DNA of 64,000 nt from Clavibacter californiensis. Its GTDB lineage: Bacteria > Actinomycetota > Actinomycetes > Actinomycetales > Microbacteriaceae. The position numbers and the translations under genes are program-made. The notes beneath the pieces are model-generated. The model did not search any database. It was not told the DNA's origin and saw only the letters and a program-made list of their open reading frames with translations. Below, in pieces: positions 8,392 through 61,198 of the stretch; position 1 is the stretch's first letter, and each line of letters starts with the position of its first letter. The stretch is taken from positions 868,001-932,000 of the forward strand of contig NZ_CP040792.1 in the NCBI RefSeq assembly GCF_021952865.1. Reading direction: 5' to 3'.

Positions 8392-10311
8392 ATGCCCTCC
8401 TCCCAAGCTCTGCCCGTCGACCCGACCGCTGGAACCCTGACACCCCTCGCCATCGATCAGGTCCAGCTGGACCCGGAGGGGTTCTGGGGACGCAGGGTCG
8501 CCGTCAACGCGACCGCCACCTTCGAGCACAACCTCGGCTGGCTGGAGCGCGCCGGATGGCTACGCAACTTCGACCTTGCCGTCGGGGGCGGACTCGCCGA
8601 AGGCCGTCGCGGACGCGAGTTCGCCGACTCCGAGGTCTACAAGACCCTTGAAGGGCTCTGTTGGCACACCGCCGGACGTCAGGACCCGGAGACCGAGTCG
8701 CTCATCCGCGGTCTCACCGCCCGCATCGTGAGCGCGCAGGAAAGCGACGGCTACCTCGGCACCCGCTTCGGCCGGCACGGTCAGGCCGAGCGTTATAGCG
8801 ACCTCGAGTGGGGCCACGAGCTGTACAACGCCGGACACCTCCTCCAGGCCGCGGTCGCGCGACTGCGCACCCACGGTGAGGACGAGTTCACGCAGGCTGC
8901 GCGCCGTCTCGCGGACCACATCTGCTCGGAGTTCGGGGCGAACGGCCGCCAGACAGTCTGCGGACATCCGGAAATCGAGGTGGGGCTCATCGAGTTCGCC
9001 CGCGCAACGGGGGAGGGACGCTACCTCGAGCAGGCCCGCCTGTTCCTGAACCGACGCGGCCACCAGAGCCTGGAAGACATCGAGTTCGGACGCGCCTACT
9101 TCCAGGACGACGTCCCGATCCGCGAGGCGGAGGTCCTGCGCGGACACGCGGTGCGCGCCCTCTACCTCACGTCCGCGGTGGTCGACGTCGCCGTGGACAC
9201 TGACGACGCCGAGCTGCTCGCGATCGTCGAGCGGCAGTGGGAGGCCACAGTCGCACGCCGCACCTACATCACCGGTGGAATGGGCTCGCATCACCAGGAC
9301 GAGGCATTCGGCGCCGACTTCGAGCTGCCCAACGACCGCGCGTACTGCGAGACCTGCGCCGGTGTCGGCTCGATCATGCTCTCGTGGCGGCTGCTGCTCG
9401 CTACCGGTCGCCCGCGCTACGCGGACCTGATCGAGCGCACTCTGTACAACATCATCGCCACCGCTGTCTCCGAGGACGGCCGCTCCTTCTTCTACGCGAA
9501 CACCCTCCACCGGCGCGAGCCGGGCGCCGCGTCCTCTCCGGATGAGCAGTCCAAGCGCGCGGACTCCAGTCAGCGAGCGGCGTGGTTCGACGTCGCCTGC
9601 TGCCCCAACAACCTCGCCCGCACCTTCGCCACGCTGTCCGGCTACCTCGCTAGCACGGACGCGAAGGGTGTGCAGCTGCACCAGTATGCGTCCGCCACGA
9701 TCTTCGCTGCTCTTCTCCAGGGAAACGTCTCGCTCGAGGTCTCCAGCGACCTGCCGGAGCGGGGGAGAGTCACCGTCACCGTCACGCGCACACCCGCCGA
9801 GCCGTGGACTCTGACGCTGCGGATCCCGACCTGGGCGACGAACGCGAACATCGTCGTCGTCTCCGCCGACGGGGAAGCTGCCGAGACGCCGACCGGACCA
9901 TTTCACGGCACGGTCCACCTCGAACGGCGTTTCCGCGTCGGCGACCGGATCGAACTCCACCTCCCCTTCGAACCCGTCATCGTGCAGCCCGACGAGAGGA
10001 TCGATGCCACCCGCGGCACCGTCGCCGTCCAGCACGGACCGGACATCCTCTGCCTTGAATCCGTCGACCTCCCCGCCGGGGCCCACGTCGACGACATCGC
10101 CTTGGACGCCCGAGCGGTCCCGATCGCACGAGGTGGGCGGGTGACCCTCGCCGGCAGCATCGCCGAACGCGACGAGCAAGAATGGCCCTTCTCCACACTC
10201 CCTCGAACCCCGCACCGGCGGCCGCTGACCGTGGCGCTCTCCCCGTACCGGTCATGGGGATCCCGAGGTCCCGTGTCGATGCGCATCTGGCTTGCCGTGA
10301 ACCACTCCTGA
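8392..10311 (+). CDS. Beta-L-arabinofuranosidase, GH127 (HypBA1-like)
   Basis: A 639-residue enzyme, close to the 658 residues of Bifidobacterium HypBA1. It should release L-arabinose from beta-1,2-arabinofuranosyl chains such as those on hydroxyproline-rich plant glycoproteins. The catalytic set is complete: Glu304 (general acid/base equivalent), zinc ligands Glu320 and Cys322 in YCETCAG, and Cys403-Cys404 in WFDVACCPNN, with Cys403 as nucleophile. The spacing of these residues matches HypBA1 closely. No signal peptide, so it acts on imported sugars. The start at 8392 has GAAGGA seven bases upstream; a longer frame from 8314 overlaps the permease and is unlikely. Confidence 0.93.
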   Translation: MPSSQALPVDPTAGTLTPLAIDQVQLDPEGFWGRRVAVNATATFEHNLGWLERAGWLRNFDLAVGGGLAEGRRGREFADSEVYKTLEGLCWHTAGRQDPETESLIRGLTARIVSAQESDGYLGTRFGRHGQAERYSDLEWGHELYNAGHLLQAAVARLRTHGEDEFTQAARRLADHICSEFGANGRQTVCGHPEIEVGLIEFARATGEGRYLEQARLFLNRRGHQSLEDIEFGRAYFQDDVPIREAEVLRGHAVRALYLTSAVVDVAVDTDDAELLAIVERQWEATVARRTYITGGMGSHHQDEAFGADFELPNDRAYCETCAGVGSIMLSWRLLLATGRPRYADLIERTLYNIIATAVSEDGRSFFYANTLHRREPGAASSPDEQSKRADSSQRAAWFDVACCPNNLARTFATLSGYLASTDAKGVQLHQYASATIFAALLQGNVSLEVSSDLPERGRVTVTVTRTPAEPWTLTLRIPTWATNANIVVVSADGEAAETPTGPFHGTVHLERRFRVGDRIELHLPFEPVIVQPDERIDATRGTVAVQHGPDILCLESVDLPAGAHVDDIALDARAVPIARGGRVTLAGSIAERDEQEWPFSTLPRTPHRRPLTVALSPYRSWGSRGPVSMRIWLAVNHS

Positions 10312-50262: not shown

Positions 50263-51057
50263 CTACCTGGGCCGGCTCTCCCAGTAGTCCGGCAGGTGGA
50301 GCCAGAATCCCTTCTCCGCCCACCGGCTGTTCAGGAGCCAGGTGGTGAACGCCGTCCCGGCGGCGCCGATGAAGGCGCACGCGATCGCCCCGGCGACCGC
50401 GCAGAGCGCGCCCACCTCGAGCGAGGCCGCCGACGCGAAGATGATCTTCGCCACGGTGGGCGAGATGCTGAGGACGATGGACGGATGGGTGATGTGGTGC
50501 CAGAAGGAGCGCCAGCTGTCCGACGCGACGAGCGGATCCGAAGGGGAGGCCGCCGTGGCGCTCGCGCCGGAGGACGCATCGAGCGCGACGGCACCGCGTC
50601 CCGGCACGGTCGCCACGAGACGACCGGATGCATCGGCAACGACCGCGATCGTCTCGACTGACTGTTCGGGGCGGCTGAGCCGCAGCTCCGCCACCTGCTC
50701 CGTGGTCTCCCGCACGAGCTGCGCGCGCTCCGCCGCGCGGGCAGCGGGCGAGAGTCCGCGGGCTGCCCCGGAGGCGACCTCCGCGGCGTCGGCGAGCTGG
50801 TCGACGGTGATGCGCCCGGAGCGGATGTCGTCCTCTGCGGTGCCGGCTCGGACGGACGCCGCGAGCGCGGGTGGGATCGTGGGTCCGGCGGTGGCGGCCG
50901 ACCCCGTCGTGTGGCTCGCGGCCTGCGCGGGCGTGACCCCTGTGGCCGTCACACCGACCGAGGTGATGGCGATGAGGGTGAGGAGGAGCGTGCTCCTCCA
51001 CCGGCCAGGGAGTCTCGCCGGGCGATGAGCGGGTCGTGCGTGCGATCGGGTAGGCAT
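50263..51057 (-). CDS. Secreted protein with hydrophobic C-terminal domain, paralogue A
   Basis: 264 residues, no known family. Signal peptide 1-46 (AQAAS cleavage area), then a helical Ala/Arg-rich part, then a hydrophobic stretch (about 203-242, VGALCAVAGAIACAFIGAAG, glycine-zipper-like with two Cys) and an aromatic end (FWLHLPDYWESRPR). The motif EDDIRSGRITVDQLADAAE (75-93) matches EHDVKSGKITADQLATVATE in the protein at 57275, and the ends also align (F/Y-aromatic...P..W[EK]S), so they are paralogues. Start 51057 has GGAGGC six bases upstream. Divergent from a TetR remnant across a shared-type operator. A pore- or membrane-acting exported factor is possible (inference). Confidence 0.8.
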   Translation of the reverse strand: MPTRSHARPAHRPARLPGRWRSTLLLTLIAITSVGVTATGVTPAQAASHTTGSAATAGPTIPPALAASVRAGTAEDDIRSGRITVDQLADAAEVASGAARGLSPAARAAERAQLVRETTEQVAELRLSRPEQSVETIAVVADASGRLVATVPGRGAVALDASSGASATAASPSDPLVASDSWRSFWHHITHPSIVLSISPTVAKIIFASAASLEVGALCAVAGAIACAFIGAAGTAFTTWLLNSRWAEKGFWLHLPDYWESRPR

Positions 51058-51472
51058 CTTTGCCTCCAGTGTTCGGGTGTGCATGGTTGGGACGGGGATC
51101 CGGTCCTCCACGGGCGTGCTGCGACACGTCACTGTGTCCGAGCCGGGTAGATGGTTCGAGCGCACGGTACGACGTCGAGTCAGACGGTCGTCTGACTCGT
51201 GCACAGGTACAGGCACAGGCACGCGGGACGCGGGTTCGCGGCGACGTGCTGGAGCCACCCGCTCGGATCCCGGGACGGGAAGAGGCCGTGGGCGGATCAG
51301 GATCCGTGATGGCCGCGTCGGCGGAGACCGGCGGTGGGCCGCGCGCACCGGCTGCGGGGCGCGGTGACGACTGACGTCACCGGCCCCCACCCACCTGCTC
51401 GCCCGCGTCCTGTCGGCCTCCGCGGGCACCGCATCCCGTTACCCTCAGCTCAGGGGTGGGACGGAGCTGCGG
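51058..51472. promoter_or_regulatory. Divergent regulatory region of paralogue A
   Basis: 415 bases with no supported gene. It holds the ribosome-binding site of the minus-strand secreted gene, the inverted repeat at 51176-51199 and no other recognised element. Confidence 0.5.
51176..51199. promoter_or_regulatory. Probable TetR operator, copy 1
   Basis: CGAGTCAGACG-GT-CGTCTGACTCG: perfect 11-base arms with a 2-base spacer, 119 bases upstream of the secreted gene start. The inner GTCAGACG-NN-CGTCTGAC closely matches the site at 58087-58106 between the paralogous gene pair. Confidence 0.72.
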
Positions 51473-51610
51473 ATGGATCGGCGACAGGCGGGCGTGCACC
51501 GCCCGCGACGGGCGATCGCGGAGGCCGCCGGCTGCCGGTTCGGGGCCCACGGCCACGCCGGCACGTCGTGCTCGCGCGTGGTCGCGGCCGACGGCGAGGC
51601 GGCGCGATGA
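51473..51610 (+). pseudogene. TetR-family regulator, N-terminal remnant
   Basis: A 45-codon frame aligned without gaps to the first 45 residues of the intact TetR at 58218; about 25 positions are identical (RQA-V, RR-I-EAAG, F-AHG, GTS-SRV). The helix-turn-helix is cut after its first helix and the ligand domain is missing. The stop overlaps the ATG of the GNAT gene, which seems to have replaced the rest. It is not expected to bind DNA. Confidence 0.75.
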
Positions 51611-52107
51611 CGGACGCGCTGCCCGATGCGGCGCTCCGCCCGGCGCGCGCCGACGACCTCTCGTTCCTCGAGGACATGCTGGTGGCGTCGATGGACTGGC
51701 GCGACGACGGGTCGATGACACGCGAGCGCATGCTCGCGACGCCGGAGCTCGCGCACTACGTGGCCGGCTGGCCGCGCGCGGGCGACGTGGGCGTCGTCGC
51801 GGAGGTCGCCGGGGATCCGGTCGGCGCGGCGTGGGCCCGCCTCTTCGCCGATGACGACCGCGGCTACGGCTTCGTCGCCGCCGACATCCCCGAGCTCGGC
51901 ATGGCGCTCGTGCCGTCGGCGCGCGGCCGGGGCCTGGGGCGGCGGATGCTCGTGGCGCTCGTGGCTGCGGTGCGCGCATCCGGCGCGCCGGCCGTGAGCC
52001 TCAGCGTGGAGGACGGGAACGACCGCGCCCGCGCGCTCTACGAGTCGCTCGGCTTCGTGGCCGTGGGGCGCGAGGGCGGATCCGACGTGCTGCTGCTCCG
52101 CGGGTGA
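51607..52107 (+). CDS. GNAT-family N-acetyltransferase
   Basis: 166 residues with the full GNAT fold: LRPARADDLSFLEDMLVAS, then the acetyl-CoA-binding ELGMALVPSARGRGLGRRML and the C-terminal SLSVEDGNDRARALYESLGF VAVGR. Substrate unknown. ATG 51607 lies inside the end of a TetR remnant; no separate promoter is visible, so it may be read from the former TetR promoter. Terminator copy 2 follows immediately. Confidence 0.9.
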   Translation: MTDALPDAALRPARADDLSFLEDMLVASMDWRDDGSMTRERMLATPELAHYVAGWPRAGDVGVVAEVAGDPVGAAWARLFADDDRGYGFVAADIPELGMALVPSARGRGLGRRMLVALVAAVRASGAPAVSLSVEDGNDRARALYESLGFVAVGREGGSDVLLLRG

Positions 52108-52111
52108 CGCA

Positions 52112-52152
52112 CGCCGCCCTCCGGCCCGCGGGATGCGGGACGGAGGGCGGCG
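52112..52152. terminator. Bidirectional terminator, copy 2
   Basis: CGCCGCCCTCCG / CGGAGGGCGGCG with a 17-base loop, between the GNAT gene and the LPXTG-protein gene. The left arm plus upstream stop codon is identical over 19 bases to 50207-50225. Confidence 0.82.
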
Positions 52153-52170
52153 GCGGTGCGGTGCGCCCGG

Positions 52171-55077
52171 TCAGGGGCGCGCTGGGCGGCCCGTCCGCGC
52201 GCGTCGGCGGCGTCGGGCCTCGAGCGCGCCCGCGGATCCGACGATCAGCAGCAGGGCCGCGAGGGCGAGCGCCGACGCGGGTGAGGATCCCGTGCGCGGC
52301 AGCGAGCCGCGGAGGCTCGCGATCGCGCTCCCGCCCGAGGTGCCGGCCGGGCTCGATCCGTCGGCGGACAGGGCGCCGGGGGAGGCCGCCCCGCCCGTGC
52401 CGGCCGGCGACGACGCGGTTCCGCTGGACGAGGGCCCGCCGGGCGTCGTGCCGGTGCCACCCGGGTCCGCCGCCACCGCGGCCGTCGTGACCACGCCCGC
52501 GGACACGTCCGCGTCGAGCCCGGAGGCGTCGACAAGGTGCAGGCCGGTGACCGTGCGGGACGCGCCCGCGGTCACGTCCTCGGCGAGCACCGCGGATCCG
52601 CCGTCGGGCAGCGCGAACCGCGTGCCCGGCGCGATGTCGCCGGCCGCGAGCGGGGTGCCCGCGACGCTGCCGCCGTCGCTCGTGACGCGCGCCGTGCCGT
52701 CGGCGACCTCGACCCGGAGGCCCTGGATCCGGACGGCCAGTCGGCTGCCCGGGTACAGCGATACGTCGTCGAGGGCGGCGCTGCCGGACGCCGCGCTCGA
52801 GGTGAGGCGGACGCCGGTGGCGCGGATCTGGCCCGCGCCGCCGTCCCCGGCGATGGTGCCGGCATCGGTCGCGGCGGCCGGCGCTGCGGTCGACGCGGCG
52901 GCGGCGTCGGACGCGGCCACCGCGCGCGGGGTGCCGAGCGTGTCCGGCGCGAGCGCGGACGGCGGGGCCGCGGACGGCGAGGCCGCGGACGGCGAGGCCG
53001 CGGACGGCGAGGCCGCGGACGGCGAGGCCGCGGACGGCGAGGCCGCGGTCGTGCCGGCCGGGCCCGCCTCGTCGGCCGGCCGCGCCACGGGCGTCGCCGC
53101 GACCGCGCTCGGCCCGGTCGCCCGGATCCCGTACGCCGACCATCCCGCAGGCGCGGAGTCCGGCACGATCGGGACGGGCGTCGGCGACGGATCCGGCGCG
53201 GGCGTCGTCGAGCCGCCCGCCGCCACGGTCACGACGCCCAGCCGCACCTCGGGGTGGCGGCCGGTGAGGTCGCGGTAGTGCAGCGCGGTGAGCGTCACCG
53301 TGCCGTCCGCGGCGACCGTCCGCTCGCCGAAGCGCACCTCGACGCGCGGGGTGCCCTGCTCGTCGACGCCCGTGTAGAGGTCGGTCGTGGTGTCGATCCA
53401 CACGCCGTTCACGAACACCGCGTTCCCCGCGTCAGCGAAGGACACGGTCATGGCGCCGGCGGCGGAGACGGCCGCGTGCAGGCCGGCGACCCGGAGGGCG
53501 GGCCAGCGGTAGTCGGCGAGCGGATCCGTCGAGGCGCCCGGCACCTGACGGAACGCGCCCACGTCGACGGTCGCGGTGCCCGCGGCGTCGCCCGTGCCGA
53601 GGTCGACGGCGACGGCCGACGCGGTGTCGGGATCCGTCCCCGTGCCGGCCACGGCGTCGGCCGACGCGTGCGGCGCGGCGACGGTCGCGGCCGGCTGCGG
53701 CGCGACGAGCACCGTGCCGTCGGCCGCGGTGACCCCGACGCCGTACGCGCCCACGACCTGCCCGGCCGCGGGCGGCACGACGACCGTGCCGAGACGCACG
53801 TCCGGGTGCGCGCCCGTGAGGTCGCGGTAGTGCACGGCGGTGACCGTGACGGTGCCGTCGGCCGCCGTCTCGTGCTCGCCGAACGCGACGGTGACGCGGG
53901 GTGCGCCCTGCTCGTCGACGCCCGTGTAGAGGTCGGTCGTGGCGTCGATCCAGCGGCCGTCCACGAAGACCGCGCTGCCGGGATCCGCGAACTCGGTCGA
54001 AACGGCGCCCGCGGGCGTGATCGTGGCGGTGAGGCCGTAGACCCGGAACGCCGTCCAGCGGTACTCGGCGAGCGGGTCGGCGGTGGATCCCGGCAGCTGC
54101 TCGAACGAGCCGACACCGACCGTGGTCGTGCCGTCCGCGCCGGTCTCGACGCGGACGGACGCGGCGTGCTCCGGGGATCCGTCCGACGCGGTGAGGGAAT
54201 CGGCGGTGGCGGAGCGGTCGAGGCCGTCGACGCGCGGCTGCCCGTCGATCACGCGCGTGCCGTCGGGAGACGTGACGGTGACGCCCGTCGCGACGCGGCC
54301 GGATGCGGGGGCCGGCGCGGGATCCGGCGCGGGGGTCGGGCCGGGGGCCGTCGTCGGATCCGGGTCCGGCGCGGGCGTCGGCGAGGACGCGGCCGACGGC
54401 GTCGGCACCGGTACGGCGGCGGCCGCCGCGCACGTCACGGATCCGGCGCGCACACGCCAGATCTCCGACGCCCCGGCCTCCGCCTCCACGTCGATGCCGA
54501 CGGTGGTGGCGGATCCGTCGTCGCCCGTCGCGGTGGACCCCACGATGACGCGGGTCGCGCCGTAGACCGACTCCGGCAGGTCGCGCGACCAGCCCGGCGT
54601 CGCGTTCGCGTCCGCGGTCACGTCCACGCCGCCGATGGTGAGCCGGTCGACGTGCACGGCGGGCGTGCCACCCGGCGTGCACGACACGGCGAGGCCCGAG
54701 AAGACGATCGCCGGCCGGTCGCGGAGCGTGAGCTCGCCGGTCGCGATGGCGCTGGACGCGCCCGTCGGACCCGCGGTCGAGGAGAGGCCGGTCGTCCGCG
54801 TGGTGTTCAGCTTCAACACGTCGCCGGTGGACGCGGCGGTGCGCGTCACCGCGGCGCCCGCGGACCACTCGGCCAGGGGCGTCGGCGCGGTGAGCGTGTC
54901 GCCGTCGATGTCGATGATCTCCACGCCGGACGCGCGCGCGAGCGCGACGTCGGCCGCGTGCGCCGCGAGGGGCGCGAGCCCGCCGAGCGCGAGGAGCGTC
55001 GCGAGGGCGACGGCGCCGGTCGCGCCGACGAGGCCGAGGGATCCGCGCGAGGAGGATCCGCGCATCGCCCGGCTCAT
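52171..55077 (-). CDS. LPXTG-anchored repeat-containing surface protein
   Basis: 968 residues. Signal peptide to about 41, an N-terminal beta domain, and two tandem homologous domains (about 322-428 and 509-615) each with PG[SA][ST][AT]DPLA[ED]YRW, TDLYTGVDEQG[AT]PRV and HYRDLTG[AR]HP[DE]VRLG. Then come a Pro/Ser/Ala-rich region with SPSAA repeats (about 678-707), a third beta domain, and a sorting signal LPRTG (about 926) plus hydrophobic helix and Arg-rich tail. So it is sortase-linked to the wall. The repeats may be adhesive or ligand-binding; no confident family. ATG overlaps the S53 protease stop by four bases, so the two are coupled. Confidence 0.85.
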   Translation of the reverse strand: MSRAMRGSSSRGSLGLVGATGAVALATLLALGGLAPLAAHAADVALARASGVEIIDIDGDTLTAPTPLAEWSAGAAVTRTAASTGDVLKLNTTRTTGLSSTAGPTGASSAIATGELTLRDRPAIVFSGLAVSCTPGGTPAVHVDRLTIGGVDVTADANATPGWSRDLPESVYGATRVIVGSTATGDDGSATTVGIDVEAEAGASEIWRVRAGSVTCAAAAAVPVPTPSAASSPTPAPDPDPTTAPGPTPAPDPAPAPASGRVATGVTVTSPDGTRVIDGQPRVDGLDRSATADSLTASDGSPEHAASVRVETGADGTTTVGVGSFEQLPGSTADPLAEYRWTAFRVYGLTATITPAGAVSTEFADPGSAVFVDGRWIDATTDLYTGVDEQGAPRVTVAFGEHETAADGTVTVTAVHYRDLTGAHPDVRLGTVVVPPAAGQVVGAYGVGVTAADGTVLVAPQPAATVAAPHASADAVAGTGTDPDTASAVAVDLGTGDAAGTATVDVGAFRQVPGASTDPLADYRWPALRVAGLHAAVSAAGAMTVSFADAGNAVFVNGVWIDTTTDLYTGVDEQGTPRVEVRFGERTVAADGTVTLTALHYRDLTGRHPEVRLGVVTVAAGGSTTPAPDPSPTPVPIVPDSAPAGWSAYGIRATGPSAVAATPVARPADEAGPAGTTAASPSAASPSAASPSAASPSAASPSAAPPSALAPDTLGTPRAVAASDAAAASTAAPAAATDAGTIAGDGGAGQIRATGVRLTSSAASGSAALDDVSLYPGSRLAVRIQGLRVEVADGTARVTSDGGSVAGTPLAAGDIAPGTRFALPDGGSAVLAEDVTAGASRTVTGLHLVDASGLDADVSAGVVTTAAVAADPGGTGTTPGGPSSSGTASSPAGTGGAASPGALSADGSSPAGTSGGSAIASLRGSLPRTGSSPASALALAALLLIVGSAGALEARRRRRARTGRPARP
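52955..53044 (-). repeat. Six tandem 15-base repeats
   Basis: Unit GCGGACGGCGAGGCC on the plus strand, six copies (first with one change), in frame in the surface-protein gene and encoding a repeating Ser-Pro-Ser-Ala-Ala. Likely a length-variable stalk. Confidence 0.9.
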
Positions 55078-57098
55078 CGTCCCGCCTCCGCGCCGAGGCC
55101 CTCGATGAACGCTCGGCCCGCGGGCACGCCGGCCCCGGTCACGTCGTCCCAGCCGGGGCCGGAGCGGAGCCCCTGCCTCCCCGTGTCCCAGAGGAAGAGC
55201 GTCTCGGGCCACAGCGCTCCTGCCGACGGGCCCTTCGGGGACCACGTCGCGGCGGAGGCGGGCTGCACGTCGCGCAGCGCGCCCGTGCCCATCAGCGCGT
55301 AGAGCGCGGGGCTCGCGAGCCCGAAGCGCCGGCCGGTGACGGCCTTGGAGATCGCGACCATGGACGCGACCATCGGCGTCGCGAGGCTCGTGCCGCCGTG
55401 CGCCGCGTACCGGGTGCTGCCCTTGTGCGGGCCGTACGTGATGAAGCCCGTGTCCGGATCCCCGAGCGACGCCACGTCCGGCAGCAGCCGCCCGGTGCCC
55501 GCGACCGCGAGCCGGTCAGCCTGCCAGGTGGGGCGCGCGTACTCCGCGGACTGACCGCCGCCCGCGCCGAACGCGAAGCCCGGCGGGATCAGCGCGCCGT
55601 TGCGCGCGAAGCGCGTCTCGGTCTCCCAGCCCGCCTCGACGGCGATGGATCCGTCCTGGGCGAGGCCGGTGCTCGTCGCGCCGACCGCGGTGACGTACGG
55701 GCTCGACGCGGGCGACGCCACGGTCGCGTTCCCGCCGTGGTCGCCGACGCCGCTGTAGTCGCCGTCGTTGCCCGTGGACGCGAAGACCGACACGTCGCGT
55801 GACGCCGCCTCCACGAGCACGCGGTTCAGCAGCTCGCGGTCGTCCGCCGTGTCGAGGCCCTCCATCGCGCCGAAGGACAGGCTGATCACGTCGGGCCCGT
55901 CCTCGGCGGCGTCGAGGATCCGCGTGTAGAGGCTCGTGCTCGTGCAGTCGTCCGCGCCCCAGTAGGAGACGGCCGCGTCGGGCGCCATCGCGTGGACCGC
56001 CTGCACGTCGAGGTGCTGCTCGTCGGTCCATGCGGTGGGTCCGCCGCAGATGCCGGTGCGCGGCGAGGCGGACGGGTGGTCGCGGTACTGGCCGGCCGTG
56101 AAGGCGGGTTCGCCGACCGCGCGGGAGTAGGTGTCGGTGTCCGCCCGGGTGTCCGGGTCGTCGTAGGCGGCGACGATCGCGATGGTGGCGCCTGCTCCGC
56201 GGTCCTCGGCGGGCACGTCGTCGACGCGCCGCAGCTGCGCCGGGCCGTAGCCGCACAGCGAGTTCGAGCGGTGGGCCACGTCGACGGACGCAGGCCACGC
56301 GTCGGTGAGGCGCTGGCCCCACCAGGCCGCGCACGTGCCGTCGTCGGCGGAGGAGGCGGGGGATCCGCCGGTCGCCTGCCCGGGGATCGGCGCGGGGACG
56401 GGGTCCGTGGCGTCGGGCGCCTGCGCATCGCCGGCGGCCCGCGCATCGCCCGCCTGCGCCGCGTCCGGCTCCGTGTCCGACGGCATGAGCACGTCGCCCT
56501 GCACGGTGCCGGCGACGCCGCGCACGGCGTCCAGGGCGGCGGGCACGGCGAGGGTCCGCTCCGGGGCGACGACCTCCCGGCCGGCGACGCGGAACCGGGC
56601 GAACCCGGTGTCGAATGCGTGCGACGCGAGCGCCAGCGTGCCGGAGACGGGCAGCGCGGACACATCGTCGCGCGCGTCGCCCACGTCGAGGCCGCTGTCG
56701 CGCAGCCAGGCGGCGACGGCCGGCGCGGCGTCGGGGCGGGCCGGATCCAGCAGCACCGTGAGCGCGACCGTCGCGTCCGCGGGTGCGTCGCCGACCCGGA
56801 CGGCGGAGGTGCCGGCGGGCCACGACGGGGCAGACCCGTCGATCGCGCGGAGCCCGGCGGCGACGCGCGCGGCGGTCGGGTCGCCGCCGGCGGTGGCGGA
56901 CTCGGATCCGGTGCCCGCGAGCGCGCTCGCGACGAGCGCCGCGACGGCGACGAGGGCGACGGCGCCCGTGCCGAGGGCGACGGATCGCGCGCGCGACGAC
57001 GGGCGCCGGACGAGGGCGCGGATCCGGCCCTCCGTCGGCGGGCGCGCGGCGGGCCCTCGGGCCTCGACGGGTGGGAGGGACGAGGGGTGTGAGGGCAT
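55074..57098 (-). CDS. S53-family serine-carboxyl protease (sedolisin)
   Basis: 674 residues. An N-terminal signal anchor (about 38-62) is followed by a pro-kumamolisin-type prodomain, then the catalytic domain. The Glu/Asp pair fits the ExxxD spacing in DEQHLDVQAVHAMAP (about 361/365), the nucleophile is Ser in HGGTSLATPMVASM (about 572; usual motif SGTS), and DVTGAG near the C-terminus is the calcium-binding region. It should be an exported, acid-active protease after propeptide removal. A TGAGAAC-G-GTTCTCA box lies 63 bases upstream of the start. It is coupled to the LPXTG protein downstream, perhaps its anchor or substrate. Confidence 0.9.
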   Translation of the reverse strand: MPSHPSSLPPVEARGPAARPPTEGRIRALVRRPSSRARSVALGTGAVALVAVAALVASALAGTGSESATAGGDPTAARVAAGLRAIDGSAPSWPAGTSAVRVGDAPADATVALTVLLDPARPDAAPAVAAWLRDSGLDVGDARDDVSALPVSGTLALASHAFDTGFARFRVAGREVVAPERTLAVPAALDAVRGVAGTVQGDVLMPSDTEPDAAQAGDARAAGDAQAPDATDPVPAPIPGQATGGSPASSADDGTCAAWWGQRLTDAWPASVDVAHRSNSLCGYGPAQLRRVDDVPAEDRGAGATIAIVAAYDDPDTRADTDTYSRAVGEPAFTAGQYRDHPSASPRTGICGGPTAWTDEQHLDVQAVHAMAPDAAVSYWGADDCTSTSLYTRILDAAEDGPDVISLSFGAMEGLDTADDRELLNRVLVEAASRDVSVFASTGNDGDYSGVGDHGGNATVASPASSPYVTAVGATSTGLAQDGSIAVEAGWETETRFARNGALIPPGFAFGAGGGQSAEYARPTWQADRLAVAGTGRLLPDVASLGDPDTGFITYGPHKGSTRYAAHGGTSLATPMVASMVAISKAVTGRRFGLASPALYALMGTGALRDVQPASAATWSPKGPSAGALWPETLFLWDTGRQGLRSGPGWDDVTGAGVPAGRAFIEGLGAEAGR

Positions 57099-57160
57099 GC
57101 GGGATCCGTATTCGATTCAGGGGGGAGTGCGCGAGGGCGCGTGCGGATGCTATCCCTGAA

Positions 57161-57175
57161 TGAGAACGGTTCTCA
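57161..57175. promoter_or_regulatory. Zur/Fur-type box before the S53/LPXTG operon
   Basis: TGAGAAC-G-GTTCTCA, a perfect 7-1-7 inverted repeat fitting the actinobacterial Zur/Fur pattern TGAnAAnnnTTnTCA. It is 63 bases upstream of the protease start codon. Confidence 0.6.
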
Positions 57176-57195
57176 CCACCTGTGGAGGGTGGGCG

Positions 57196-57243
57196 GCCTC
57201 GTCGGCATGCGACGAGGCGGCGGGCTGGAGATCCAGCCCGCCG
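57196..57243 (-). terminator. Tandem hairpins after paralogue B
   Basis: CGGCGGGCTGG / CCAGCCCGCCG (57218-57243) is adjacent to GCCTCGTCG / CGACGAGGC (57196-57218; they share one base). They follow the minus-strand gene ending at 57275 and insulate it from the protease operon. Confidence 0.7.
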
Positions 57244-57274
57244 CCCCGTCCCGGTCAGGAGACCGGATCGGGTG

Positions 57275-57979
57275 TCATCCGCCGCAGTGCGACTTCCAGA
57301 CCTTCGGGAAGTCGAAGTAGTAGCCCTGGCCGCAGGTCCAGCTCTTGATGAACTCGCCGAGGCCGCCCACGACGACGCCCAGCGCGAGGCAGGAGAGCTT
57401 GCTCAGGTCGAGCGTGATGCACATGGTGCCGATGTAGACGGCCACGCCCACCGTGATGGCCGTCTTGATGATGTAGCCGGGGATGTGCCACTCGTGGTTG
57501 CTCCAGAACCACTTCGATTCGGTGATGGTGCCCGCGCTGCCCTGCGCGACGACGTCCGCCTTGGTGACCGCTCGGCCGTCCTTCGAGTCGAGCGTCTGCT
57601 GGATCGCCGCGTTCTCCACCGCGTTCGCGTGGGAGGAGGCGGTGTTCTGGATCTCCGCGCGGATCTCGGCGGCGGCCTGCGCGTGGCTCTCGCCCTTCGC
57701 GGCCCACGCGGGGATGTGCTGGCCGGCGACGACGGTGCCTTCGGTCGCGACGGTGGCGAGCTGGTCGGCGGTGATCTTGCCGCTCTTCACGTCGTGCTCG
57801 AACGTGCCGTTGAGGAGGGAGGACGCCACGACCGACTGGTCGAGGTGGGCGGGGGCGGCCTGGGCGGCGTCGCCGGCGCCCATCCCGAAGAGGGCGACCG
57901 CGGTGACGGTCGCGGCGGCCGCGAGCAGGCGGACGGAGCGGCGGGAGGGGGCCGGGACCGTGGGTGATGCGAGGGACAT
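57275..57979 (-). CDS. Secreted protein with hydrophobic C-terminal domain, paralogue B
   Basis: 234 residues, no known family. Signal peptide 1-42 (AQAA), the motif EHDVKSGKITADQLATVATE (61-80) shared with the 50263 protein, a helical Ala-rich part, then a hydrophobic C-terminal half (IIKTAITVGVAVYIGTM, LALGVVVGGLGEF) with four Cys and an aromatic end (YYFDFPKVWKSHCGG). The layout suggests an exported, disulfide-stabilised membrane-active protein; that is inference. GGAAGG seven bases before ATG 57979. It is divergent from an intact TetR gene, with an inverted repeat between them. Confidence 0.82.
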   Translation of the reverse strand: MSLASPTVPAPSRRSVRLLAAAATVTAVALFGMGAGDAAQAAPAHLDQSVVASSLLNGTFEHDVKSGKITADQLATVATEGTVVAGQHIPAWAAKGESHAQAAAEIRAEIQNTASSHANAVENAAIQQTLDSKDGRAVTKADVVAQGSAGTITESKWFWSNHEWHIPGYIIKTAITVGVAVYIGTMCITLDLSKLSCLALGVVVGGLGEFIKSWTCGQGYYFDFPKVWKSHCGG

Positions 57980-58086
57980 GACTGGCCTTCCGTATCGAGG
58001 GGCGACCATCGCCCCGCGAGCACGGTAGGGGCGCGATGCCCCCGTTCCGGGGTCGAACGGGTACCTCCGCATGAACGACGCATGTC

Positions 58087-58106
58087 CGTCAGTCGCTCGT
58101 CTGACG
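58087..58106. promoter_or_regulatory. Probable TetR operator, copy 2
   Basis: CGTCAGTCG-CT-CGTCTGACG, 9-base arms with one mismatch, 108 bases upstream of paralogue B and 112 upstream of the TetR gene. Matches 51176-51199 in the core GTCAG[AT]CG-NN-CGTCTGAC. Confidence 0.7.
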
Positions 58107-58217
58107 AAGGCCTCCCGACATGGCCGCCGCTCCGTCCGTTCATCCCGGCGTGGGACTCCCGTCGATCGGGACGGGTAGTCTTCCTCGACTCCCGGACGGG
58201 GAAGGAACAGGAGCGAC

Positions 58218-58949
58218 ATGAACCAGCGGCAGGCGGCGGTGTCCCGGGCACGGCGCGAGATCATGGAGGCGGCGGGCGCGCAGTTCGCGGCCCACGGCTA
58301 CGAGGGCACGTCGTTCTCGCGCGTGGCCGAGGCGATGGGCAAGCCCAAGTCCGCCATCGGGTACCACCTCTTCGCATCCAAGGAGAGCCTCGCGGGCGCG
58401 GTGGTCGAGGCCCAGGAGGACCGCTGGCTCCGCATCGAGGCGGCGCTCGACCGGCCGGGGTCGCTGCACGAGCTCATCGTCTTCCTCCTCACGGGTGCCA
58501 GCACCGTGGAGGTCTGCCCCGTCGCCGCGGGTGCCATCCGGCTCCTGCAGGACATGCCCCGGCTCGGCCTCGCCGTCGAGCGCCGCTTCGACGTGTGGGG
58601 GTTCACCCGGAAGCACCTGGAGGCGGAGCTCGCGGTCCGGGACATCCGCGCCCCCGATCTCGACGCCGTCGTCGACATCCTGCTGAGCGCGACCTTCGGC
58701 GTGCTCTCCTACCGCTCACCGCGGCTGGCCGAGCCCGACTCCGCGGAGCGCCTGCGCAGCCTCTGGATCCCGCTCCTGGTCGGCATCGGGATCGACGACG
58801 CGGACGCCGTCGTGCGCGCCGCCCGGCCACTCGACCTGGAGCTCGTGGAGGCCGGGCGCCCGGACGCCTCCGAGGCGCTCGACGGCTCGGCGCGCGGCCC
58901 GAAGGACGCTGACGCCGCCACCGCGGAGGACAGCCGCGCCCGCGCCTGA
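58218..58949 (+). CDS. TetR-family transcriptional regulator
   Basis: 243 residues. N-terminal helix-turn-helix: RREIMEAAGAQFAAHGYEGT, SFSRVAEAMGKPKSAIGYHL, followed by the helical ligand-binding domain (VVEAQEDRWLRIEAALDRPG and beyond). The acidic C-terminal tail (about 215-243) is unusual. A strong ribosome-binding site (AAGGAACAGGAG) precedes ATG 58218. Divergent from the secreted protein at 57275, it most likely represses itself and that gene through the site at 58087, and perhaps the paralogous gene at 50263 whose own TetR is truncated. Confidence 0.92.
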   Translation: MNQRQAAVSRARREIMEAAGAQFAAHGYEGTSFSRVAEAMGKPKSAIGYHLFASKESLAGAVVEAQEDRWLRIEAALDRPGSLHELIVFLLTGASTVEVCPVAAGAIRLLQDMPRLGLAVERRFDVWGFTRKHLEAELAVRDIRAPDLDAVVDILLSATFGVLSYRSPRLAEPDSAERLRSLWIPLLVGIGIDDADAVVRAARPLDLELVEAGRPDASEALDGSARGPKDADAATAEDSRARA

Positions 58950-59020: not shown

Positions 59021-61198
59021 CTACTCCACGCGACCCGCGTACCGGTACCGGAACCCGGCCCCGTCGGTGACCACCACGTCGTAGTAGCCCCACTCGTCCA
59101 CCGGCCAGTTCACCGTCGTGCTGCGTCCGGGCTTCACCGTCTCGTGGCGCTCGCGCGTGATGAAGTCGTTGGCCGTCAGCGTGTAGTGCACCGAGGGCGT
59201 CCCGTCGTTCGCGAGCGTGAGCCGCAGCACGCCCTTGCCGCCGGGGATCGTCTCGGCCGAGACCCGCGGGACGGGCACGTCGGTCGTCCCCGCCGCGATC
59301 ACGGTGCCGGCGAAGCGGCGCAGGAACCGGTCGGGCCCGTAGAGGCTGAAGTCGTACGCGCCCTCGTGCGCCGAGCTCTCCCACGTGTAGGCCGCCTTCC
59401 TGCGCGGCGCCACGGTGAAGGGCGTCGATGCGAACGGCAGCGCGATGTTGGGGAACACCTGGTGCGAGACGCCCTGCTTGCCCTGGTTGCGCATCGTCAG
59501 CGTCACTCGGCCGCTCGCGCGGTCGACGGCCACGTCGGCGTCCTGCCGGTAGGGGAGCGGGCGGTGGCGCATGCTGCCCGCCTCCTGCTCGGGCATCCGC
59601 TGCGCGCCCACGGCGGGCTCCTGCACGGGCGGCTTCGCCATGTCGGCGTCGGCGGCCGCGACGAGTGCCTGCGTCGCGCTCATCGGCAGCACCTCGTCGG
59701 CGGACGGGATGGAGAAGTCCGGGTGCGCGAAGTCGAAGCACGAGGTGAGGTCGCCGGAGATCGCGCGGCGCCAGGCGGAGATGTTCGGCTCGTGCACGCC
59801 CGTCCACGTCTCGAGGAACCGGATCACGGAGGTGTGGTCGAACACCTGCGAGTCGACCCAGCCGCCGCGGCTCCACGGCGAGACGACCGTCATCGGGACG
59901 CGCGTGCCGTAGCCGACGGGCAGGCCGTCGACGTACTCGTCGGCCGTCCCGGGCTCGGCGAGCGGCGGCAGCTGGTGGTCGAAGTAGCCGTCGTTCTCGT
60001 CGTAGTTCAGCAGCAGCACGGTGCTCGCCCACGTGTCCGGGTTGCTCATGAGCGCCTGGATCACGGCGTTCGTGTAGTGCGCGCCGTAGTCCGGGCTGGC
60101 CTTGGGATGCTCGCTCCACCCGTACGGGGCCACGACGTACGACACGGCCGGCAGCGTGTTCGCCGCGGCGTCCTTCCCGAACTCCTCGAGCAGGTGCGTG
60201 ACGTCGAGGCCCTTGCCCGAGTCCGGCTTCCACCCGTCGTGCAGGCCGCCGTCGAGCGCGAGCTGACGAGTCCGGGGATCCGAGGACGCGAGCGCCTCGT
60301 GGTACTGGTGGAACAGCCACAGCGGGTTGTCGCCGTAGTCGCCCACGTAGGGGTGCGTGCCGTCGTCGCCGACCTCGTCGTTGGCGTACGTCTTCCACGT
60401 GACCCCTGCCTCCCGGAGGCGCTCGGGGTACGTCGTCCACGCGAAGACGGGCGCATAGTCGTCGGGGTTGTCGATGGCGGGGCCGCCGGCCTTCCCGCGG
60501 GCGTCGATCGTGCCGGTCCACTGGAACAGGCGGTTCGGGGTCGTCGGGCCGATGAGCGAGCAGTGGTAGTGGTCGGCGATCGTGAACGCTGAGGCCAGGG
60601 CGTGGTGGAAGGGGAGGTCGTCCTTCGTGAAGTAGCCCATGGTCTGCTCGCTCTTCGCGACGACCCAGTTGTCCCACGCGCCCTTGTTCCAGGCCTGGTG
60701 CCCGCCCTTCCAGGAGTGGTCGAGGCCGCCGGCGCCCTGCGCGTTGAAGCGGGACGAGTCGAGCGGGAAGGGCAGCATGTGCCCGCCGTCGGGACGGCTC
60801 GAGTCGGGCTGGGCGAACACCGACCCGCCGCCGGGGTACTCCACGGCCTGCTTGTCGCTGAAGCCGCGGACGCCCGGCAGCGTGCCGAAGTAGTGGTCGA
60901 ACGAGCGGTTCTCCTGCATGAGGATCACGACGTGCTCCACGTCCTCGATCGAGCGGGTGAGGTTCCGGCGCGCGGCGGCGGTCGCGGCGGTGGCGCTCGC
61001 GGTGCCGGAGCCGGCGGCGGATCCCGCGGCGACGCCCGCCATGATCGCGGCCGCGCCGCCCATCAGGACCGTGCGGCGGCTGATGCCGGGGCGGACGGCG
61101 CCGCGGTACTGGCGCGAGGGGTCGAGCGGGGGCGCGGCGTCGACGCCGGCCGCGAGGTCGACGTCCGGGGCGTGCCCTTCGGGCTTGGAGGTGCTCAC
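59021..61198 (-). CDS. Tat-exported phospholipase C (phosphocholine-specific type)
   Basis: 725 residues, the usual size of actinobacterial non-haemolytic phospholipases C. A twin-arginine signal (SRRTVLMGG, Arg41-Arg42) and the phosphoesterase domain are present: HVVILMQENRSFDHYFGTLPGVRGF, LIGPTTPNRLFQWTGTID, LLLNYDENDGYFDH and a C-terminal tandem DUF756-type beta region ending RYAGRVE (quoted in parts). It hydrolyses phosphatidylcholine or sphingomyelin outside the cell, a possible virulence or nutrient-scavenging role. GTG 61198, with AAGGACA upstream. An inverted repeat GCGTCAC-N5-GTGACGC lies at 61437-61455, about 240 bases upstream. Confidence 0.92.
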   Translation of the reverse strand: MSTSKPEGHAPDVDLAAGVDAAPPLDPSRQYRGAVRPGISRRTVLMGGAAAIMAGVAAGSAAGSGTASATAATAAARRNLTRSIEDVEHVVILMQENRSFDHYFGTLPGVRGFSDKQAVEYPGGGSVFAQPDSSRPDGGHMLPFPLDSSRFNAQGAGGLDHSWKGGHQAWNKGAWDNWVVAKSEQTMGYFTKDDLPFHHALASAFTIADHYHCSLIGPTTPNRLFQWTGTIDARGKAGGPAIDNPDDYAPVFAWTTYPERLREAGVTWKTYANDEVGDDGTHPYVGDYGDNPLWLFHQYHEALASSDPRTRQLALDGGLHDGWKPDSGKGLDVTHLLEEFGKDAAANTLPAVSYVVAPYGWSEHPKASPDYGAHYTNAVIQALMSNPDTWASTVLLLNYDENDGYFDHQLPPLAEPGTADEYVDGLPVGYGTRVPMTVVSPWSRGGWVDSQVFDHTSVIRFLETWTGVHEPNISAWRRAISGDLTSCFDFAHPDFSIPSADEVLPMSATQALVAAADADMAKPPVQEPAVGAQRMPEQEAGSMRHRPLPYRQDADVAVDRASGRVTLTMRNQGKQGVSHQVFPNIALPFASTPFTVAPRRKAAYTWESSAHEGAYDFSLYGPDRFLRRFAGTVIAAGTTDVPVPRVSAETIPGGKGVLRLTLANDGTPSVHYTLTANDFITRERHETVKPGRSTTVNWPVDEWGYYDVVVTDGAGFRYRYAGRVE

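What the first reader, a model, noticed from the sequence alone, without database searches (positions are those of the whole stretch)
50263..58949. Duplicated module: hydrophobic secreted protein plus divergent TetR, flanking a protease/surface-protein operon
The proteins at 50263 and 57275 share SG[RK]IT[VA]DQLA, a signal peptide, a hydrophobic Cys-containing C-terminal half and a similar aromatic end. Each faces a TetR gene (45-codon remnant, and intact), and each intergenic region has the same inverted repeat. I recognise no family for the secreted pair. Glycine-zipper-like, Cys-containing exported ends suggest a membrane-active factor or bacteriocin/effector. Between them lies a coupled S53 protease and LPXTG protein, which could process or display them. 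This is the best candidate in the window for an undescribed system.
Basis: partly seen in the sequence, partly recalled or inferred. Interest (0 to 1): 0.85.

Follow-up and report, generated by a model that had tools for sequence, protein, structure and literature searches.

The report
TetR regulon of unknown secreted proteins
A plant-associated bacterium carries an undescribed family of exported proteins, spread over its genome and apparently switched on together by one repressor that reads the same short DNA palindrome in front of each gene.

The parts
57275..57979 (-). secreted protein, copy 1 (234 aa; signal peptide, SGKITADQLA, four Cys, hydrophobic helical hairpin, C-terminal WKSHC)
   Evidence: nothing above cut-off in Pfam/NCBIfam, nothing credible in PDB sequences
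50263..51057 (-). secreted protein, copy 2 (264 aa; SGRITVDQLA; last two Cys of the family lost)
   Evidence: 94% identical protein in G017
58088..58105 (.). operator-like palindrome GTCAGTCGCTCGTCTGAC, 109 bp from the copy 1 start and 113 bp from the TetR start
51179..51196 (.). operator-like palindrome GTCAGACGGTCGTCTGAC, 122 bp from the copy 2 start
58218..58949 (+). TetR-family regulator, CprB/AvaR1-like over residues 4-190
51473..51610 (+). TetR N-terminal remnant (45 aa, ends before the presumed recognition helix); 98.6% identical DNA in G017
55074..57098 (-). S53-type (pro-kumamolisin) protease: neighbour, not shown to belong
   Evidence: PF09286 and PF00082 above cut-off
52171..55125 (-). 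LPXTG surface protein overlapping the protease gene: neighbour, not shown to belong
   Evidence: TIGR01167 16.8 bits, cut-off 15.9; Pfam anchor PF00746 below its cut-off

Best explanation
The window holds the regulator and two target genes of a small dispersed regulon of exported proteins. Shown by sequence: three paralogous secreted genes and one other small exported gene in this genome each carry the palindrome or its core about 80-125 bp before the start; TetR orthologues in three genera keep the presumed recognition helix and lie near the same core palindrome. Inferred: TetR 58218 binds the palindrome as a dimer and represses these genes (and here perhaps itself, since the site lies midway in the divergent 240 bp); a small ligand, perhaps butenolide-like and made by another organism because no AfsA synthase was found in the genus, releases it; the proteins are exported by Sec, form two disulfides, and the C-terminal hydrophobic hairpin acts at a membrane or surface outside the cell. 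Most likely role: niche or host-interaction exoproteins, because several other operator-bearing genes encode exported enzymes or enzyme-like proteins (secreted chorismate mutase, trypsin-like, beta-helix and peptidoglycan-binding proteins).
For: Exact operator 3 times in 3.24 Mb, each before a paralogue; 13 exact sites in 10 of 18 Clavibacter genomes, 13 of 13 upstream of a family member (one of them broken), reversed control 1 site. 24 of 68 family matches have a site scoring 13 or more of 16 between 450 bp upstream and 60 bp inside, against 2.5% of 3000 random 510-bp stretches of the same loci. Such members occur in 15 of the 17 genomes with TetR; the one genome without TetR has none. PKSAIGYHLF (presumed recognition helix, placed from knowledge of the TetR fold) is the same in 17 of 17 TetR orthologues of Clavibacter; of two second TetRs (42-43% identical) facing a family member with a palindrome, one has it and one differs by A to V; it is the same in G574, G537 and G021. 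G021: CAGACGATCGTCTG 71 bp before its TetR. G574: palindrome, small ORF, chorismate mutase (PF01817, 52.7 bits, cut-off 27), TetR; G537: palindrome, chorismate mutase, TetR. Own genome: core site at 595315, 82 bp before a 177-aa exported protein.
Against: No binding or expression data. Where TetR stands without copy 1 in Clavibacter no operator scoring 13 or more lies beside it, so self-repression is not general. G001 and G005 have TetR and no such operator-bearing member; 44 of 68 family matches lack a good site. The looser core YAGWCGNNCGWCTR is not enriched: 119 sites against 139 for the reversed control over 21 genomes (G000 8 against 5, G021 5 against 13). Some symmetric core sites do not precede an exported gene: Sua5-like gene in G537 and G574, a site inside a reading frame in G015, and four sites in G537/G574 not resolved. 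Models are weak (pLDDT 55 full, 71 for the C-terminal part; no PDB match with E<0.001).
Confidence: 0.7

Rival explanations
1. The secreted proteins are bacteriocin-like: exported proteins that kill close relatives through the Cys-braced hydrophobic hairpin, with the regulon as a competition response.
For: Raised dN/dS (0.24-0.73 over 15 pairs of copy 1 orthologues; TetR 0.18-0.42 over 15 pairs, so the ranges overlap; S53 0.19-0.25 over 10 pairs); replacement of copy 1 in G017 by a protein 26% identical to it while flanking S53 and TetR stay at 89% and 93%; up to 10 matches per genome (some pieces of one gene), broken and truncated copies, plasmid copies; C. michiganensis is reported to produce a new type of antimicrobial protein (Liu et al. 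2013; only its title was seen, in the reference list of PMC7259588; its 14-kDa size and narrow spectrum are recalled).
Confidence: 0.3
2. The secreted proteins are apoplastic effectors or colonisation factors acting on the plant.
For: Family found in Clavibacter, one further genus of the same family and Curtobacterium flaccumfaciens plasmids (poinsettia among the listed sources); operator-bearing secreted chorismate mutase, trypsin-like (below Pfam cut-off) and beta-helix (just below cut-off) proteins.
Against: No host-target evidence; which of these strains are pathogenic was not looked up; the chorismate mutase and trypsin-like genes were seen in the other genus, not as operator-bearing genes in Clavibacter.
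Confidence: 0.4
3. Another regulator reads the palindrome; the TetR next door is incidental. (The published TetR-family virulence regulator Vatr1 may be this TetR or another one; untested.)
For: The palindrome goes with secreted genes at loci and on plasmids without a TetR beside them, and is missing beside TetR when copy 1 is absent.
Against: Same core palindrome by the TetR orthologues of G021, G574 and G537, and second TetRs with a palindrome; conserved helix.
Confidence: 0.15
4. The S53 protease and LPXTG protein process or display the secreted pair.
For: They lie between the two copies.
Against: Each is present without the other at this locus in several genomes.
Confidence: 0.05

Closest known systems
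ArpA/ScbR/CprB/AvaR1 butyrolactone- and butenolide-receptor TetR proteins
   Same: Near full-length match to CprB (E 5e-8) and AvaR1 (E 7e-8) in the PDB; a Trp aligned with CprB Trp127 (its ligand-pocket role is recalled)
   Different: 72 bits against a 150-bit ScbR cut-off; no AfsA match in any of 18 Clavibacter genomes; targets seen here are exported proteins
Vatr1, TetR-family virulence regulator of C. michiganensis (PMC12455917: passages and one section read; Savidor et al. 2014 seen only as a reference)
   Same: TetR family, Clavibacter, acts on an exported enzyme gene (xysB)
   Different: No locus tag or sequence was found in the passages read, so identity is untested
CmmAMP-I of C. michiganensis (Liu et al. 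2013, not held; the name is recalled)
   Same: Antimicrobial protein of Clavibacter, called a new type in the title
   Different: Sequence not available; membership untested
Michiganin A (actagardine-like lantibiotic by the title cited in PMC11521342, passages read)
   Same: Clavibacter antibacterial
   Different: A ribosomal, modified peptide; no comparison was run

Membership tests
ScbR/ArpA-type autoregulator receptor | Over the curated NF041196 score | tested here: not met
   71.8 bits, cut-off 150
ScbR/ArpA-type autoregulator receptor | Similarity to solved receptors over both domains | tested here: met
   CprB residues 3-192, AvaR1 14-201
ScbR/ArpA-type autoregulator receptor | AfsA-type synthase in the genome | tested here: not met
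   0 of 18 Clavibacter genomes; 1 of all 40 searched, below cut-off
ScbR/ArpA-type autoregulator receptor | Ligand-released repression | not testable with these tools
   needs experiment
TetR family | TetR_N DNA-binding domain | tested here: met
   PF00440 34.9 bits, cut-off 24
Known secreted protein family (Pfam, NCBIfam, PHROGs, PADLOC, PDB sequences) | Credible profile match of family members | tested here: not met
   Only weak or sub-cut-off single matches for copies 1 and 2 and the 18 members of A1, the best being one PHROGs match at E 9e-4 of unknown function
Bacteriocin with dedicated immunity | Recurrent immunity gene beside the structural gene | tested here: inconclusive
   none noticed at the loci read; small genes not searched systematically
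CmmAMP-I family | Sequence homology to CmmAMP-I | not testable with these tools
   paper and sequence not held
S53 peptidase (neighbour) | Pro-kumamolisin activation domain | tested here: met
   PF09286 30 bits, cut-off 23.5

The most novel reading that the evidence does not exclude
An undescribed class of exported, disulfide-braced, membrane-active proteins has radiated in Clavibacter (up to 10 matches in one genome, present on plasmids and swapped at a fixed locus) and part of it is fired as a set by a butenolide-receptor-like TetR with no cognate synthase, that is, by eavesdropping on a signal from the host plant or from other bacteria.
Probability: 0.2. Interest if true: 0.8.

Novelty: new variant of a known kind. 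Interest (0 to 1): 0.55.

Why it matters
It gives a concrete regulator, an 18-bp site and a short list of target genes for a family of exported proteins that none of the searched libraries names, in a genus of crop pathogens. The site alone predicts further secreted factors (for example the 177-aa protein near 595315 of this genome) and ties them to a secreted chorismate mutase in a related genus.

Tried and rejected
Rejected: recent duplication (about 25-31% identity); chance similarity; S53/LPXTG as part of the system. No sign of phage origin: no match in 50,697 phage records, 57 pattern hits but no relative in viral contigs; no defence profile at E 0.01. Led nowhere: Rfam (nothing at gathering score); structure of the full protein (pLDDT 55) and a fold search with the C-terminal model (31 matches, best E 3.4); PDB profile search (4 matches, best E 2.1); searches for the CmmAMP-I paper; a gamma-butyrolactone/Microbacteriaceae/receptor paper search (0 papers); Clavibacter with TetR and palindrome or operator (939 papers with at least 3 of 4 terms, 15 listed, listing only, none on this) and with promoter motif (26 papers, 20 listed; passages read in three of them: PMC12455917, PMC7839047, PMC4748050). 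That this regulon is not in print rests only, most of them seen as listings. Papers of which passages were read: PMC12089995, PMC11521342, PMC4059874, PMC7259588, PMC11639067, PMC4626563, PMC7839047, PMC12455917, PMC4748050, PMC10264788, PMC5217389, PMC10049144. Dropped rows: family hits that overlap the GNAT gene come from the frame-broken G015 query and were discarded. Genomes outside Clavibacter were sampled (297, 398 and 396 genomes, Clavibacter included) with at most 9 or 6 best candidates scored in each, so absence there is soft. The site list was cut off, so looser sites of several genomes were not seen.

Full report
What is there. The window lies at 868001-932000 of the larger contig of a two-contig, 3.24-Mb genome. 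The species was not determined. The order on the window is alpha/beta-hydrolase, secreted copy 2 (50263-51057, minus), operator (51179-51196), TetR remnant (51473-51610), GNAT, LPXTG protein, S53-type protease, secreted copy 1 (57275-57979, minus), operator (58088-58105), TetR (58218-58949), phospholipase C.

Distribution. The profile gives 68 matches, some of them pieces of one gene, in 17 of 18 Clavibacter genomes. Outside, it was found in two genomes of one other genus of the same family (G537, G574) and weakly in G285, and in no other non-Clavibacter genome among the samples (297 genomes; 398; 396), all with shallow scoring. By protein search 10 Curtobacterium flaccumfaciens plasmid records carry a 43% relative, and two Clavibacter records a 28% one; I read one of each. 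The Curtobacterium plasmid read has a second, 32% relative without a site near it.

The repeat. GTCAGWCGNNCGWCTGAC occurs exactly three times in the genome, before each of the three paralogues; the slightly looser GTCAGNCGNNCGNCTGAC has no further site at 0 or 1 mismatch and 27 at 2. Expected exact sites by chance: 0.003 to 0.03. In 18 Clavibacter genomes there are 13 exact sites in 10 genomes and each lies before a family member, one of them broken; the reversed pattern occurs once. With a softer score 24 of 68 family matches have a site, against 2.5% of random stretches. Palindromes also lie before the relatives in G574 (14 of 16) and, weaker (12), in G537 and on the Curtobacterium and C. 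insidiosus plasmids; a score of 12 is reached by 4% of random stretches.

The regulator. Of 26 genomes searched, TetR 58218 has a match at E 1e-12 or better in 20: 17 of 18 Clavibacter, G537, G574, and G021 of a third genus; not in G009, G018, G019, G020, G023, G285. It resembles CprB and AvaR1 over both domains but falls below the ScbR cut-off, and no AfsA match was found in 18 Clavibacter genomes. PKSAIGYHLF, the presumed recognition helix, is the same in all three genera. In G021 the core palindrome CAGACGATCGTCTG stands 71 bp before TetR. In G574 a palindrome precedes a small ORF, a secreted chorismate mutase and TetR in a row, and in G537 a chorismate mutase and TetR; there the exported family member is elsewhere in the genome. 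In Clavibacter the regulator stands divergently beside a family member in 9 of 17 genomes, one truncated and one broken; a second TetR (42-43% identical) faces a family member in G003 and G014, again with a palindrome. These repeated pairings are the best evidence that this TetR subfamily reads this site.

Other targets. Symmetric core sites outside the family mostly precede exported proteins: a 2-Cys protein of about 165-180 aa in G004, G011, G002 and, in the own genome, near 595315; another 2-Cys protein in G002 and G011; a beta-helix protein in G008 (PF13229 just under cut-off); an amidase divergent from a family-like gene in G012; in G537 and G574 trypsin-like proteins (under cut-off), in G574 a peptidoglycan-binding, Rv2525c-like protein, in G537 an exported protein of no family. 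Against a strict rule: a Sua5-like gene carries a site in G537 and G574; a site in G015 lies inside a reading frame; sites at G574:C10:1022856 and G537:267930, 437124 and 3113804 were not resolved. The five asymmetric sites of G574 and G537 that I read lie inside long reading frames and look like chance. The loose pattern as a whole is not enriched over its control (119 against 139 sites in 21 genomes).

What does not belong. At this locus the S53/LPXTG pair stands without copy 1 in G001, G003, G005, G006, G007 and G012, and a secreted gene stands without S53 in G002 and G009. So I do not accept that the pair processes or displays the secreted proteins.

Mechanism. Likely a ligand-released TetR repressor controlling a dispersed set of exported proteins; the ligand is unknown. 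The proteins are probably disulfide-braced and act outside the cell, perhaps at membranes. Copy 1 has raised dN/dS (0.24-0.73; TetR 0.18-0.42, S53 0.19-0.25), and in G017 a different family member, closer to copy 2 (42%) than to copy 1 (26%), sits at the same place. That pattern fits host-directed factors and bacteriocins alike. The company of exported enzymes leans to the first; the report of a new type of Clavibacter antimicrobial protein (Liu et al. 2013, seen only as a reference) keeps the second alive.

Noticed in passing
L173:8977-9171 (G574) and L175 about 10080-10300 (G021): A short ORF with a C-x-C-D/S...DH motif lies next to the palindrome near TetR in two genera; a possible further partner of this TetR outside Clavibacter.
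   Followed up: partly
L153 (G009:C16:353726-357437): The one Clavibacter genome without this TetR has its family member directly beside the phospholipase gene, as if TetR, operator and promoter had been lost together.
   Followed up: partly
window 59021-61198 and loci L147, L160, L161: The phospholipase C gene next to TetR has a second copy beside it in three of the Clavibacter loci read.
   Followed up: no
L182:3881-4900, L187:5080-6135: Exported trypsin-like proteins with the palindrome in G574 and G537; the G537 one has distant relatives on Clavibacter, Curtobacterium, Streptomyces and other plasmids (83 records).
   Followed up: no
L095:6239-8555: On plasmid pCI3 a family member lies beside an MFS transporter and a non-ribosomal peptide synthetase gene.
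   Followed up: no
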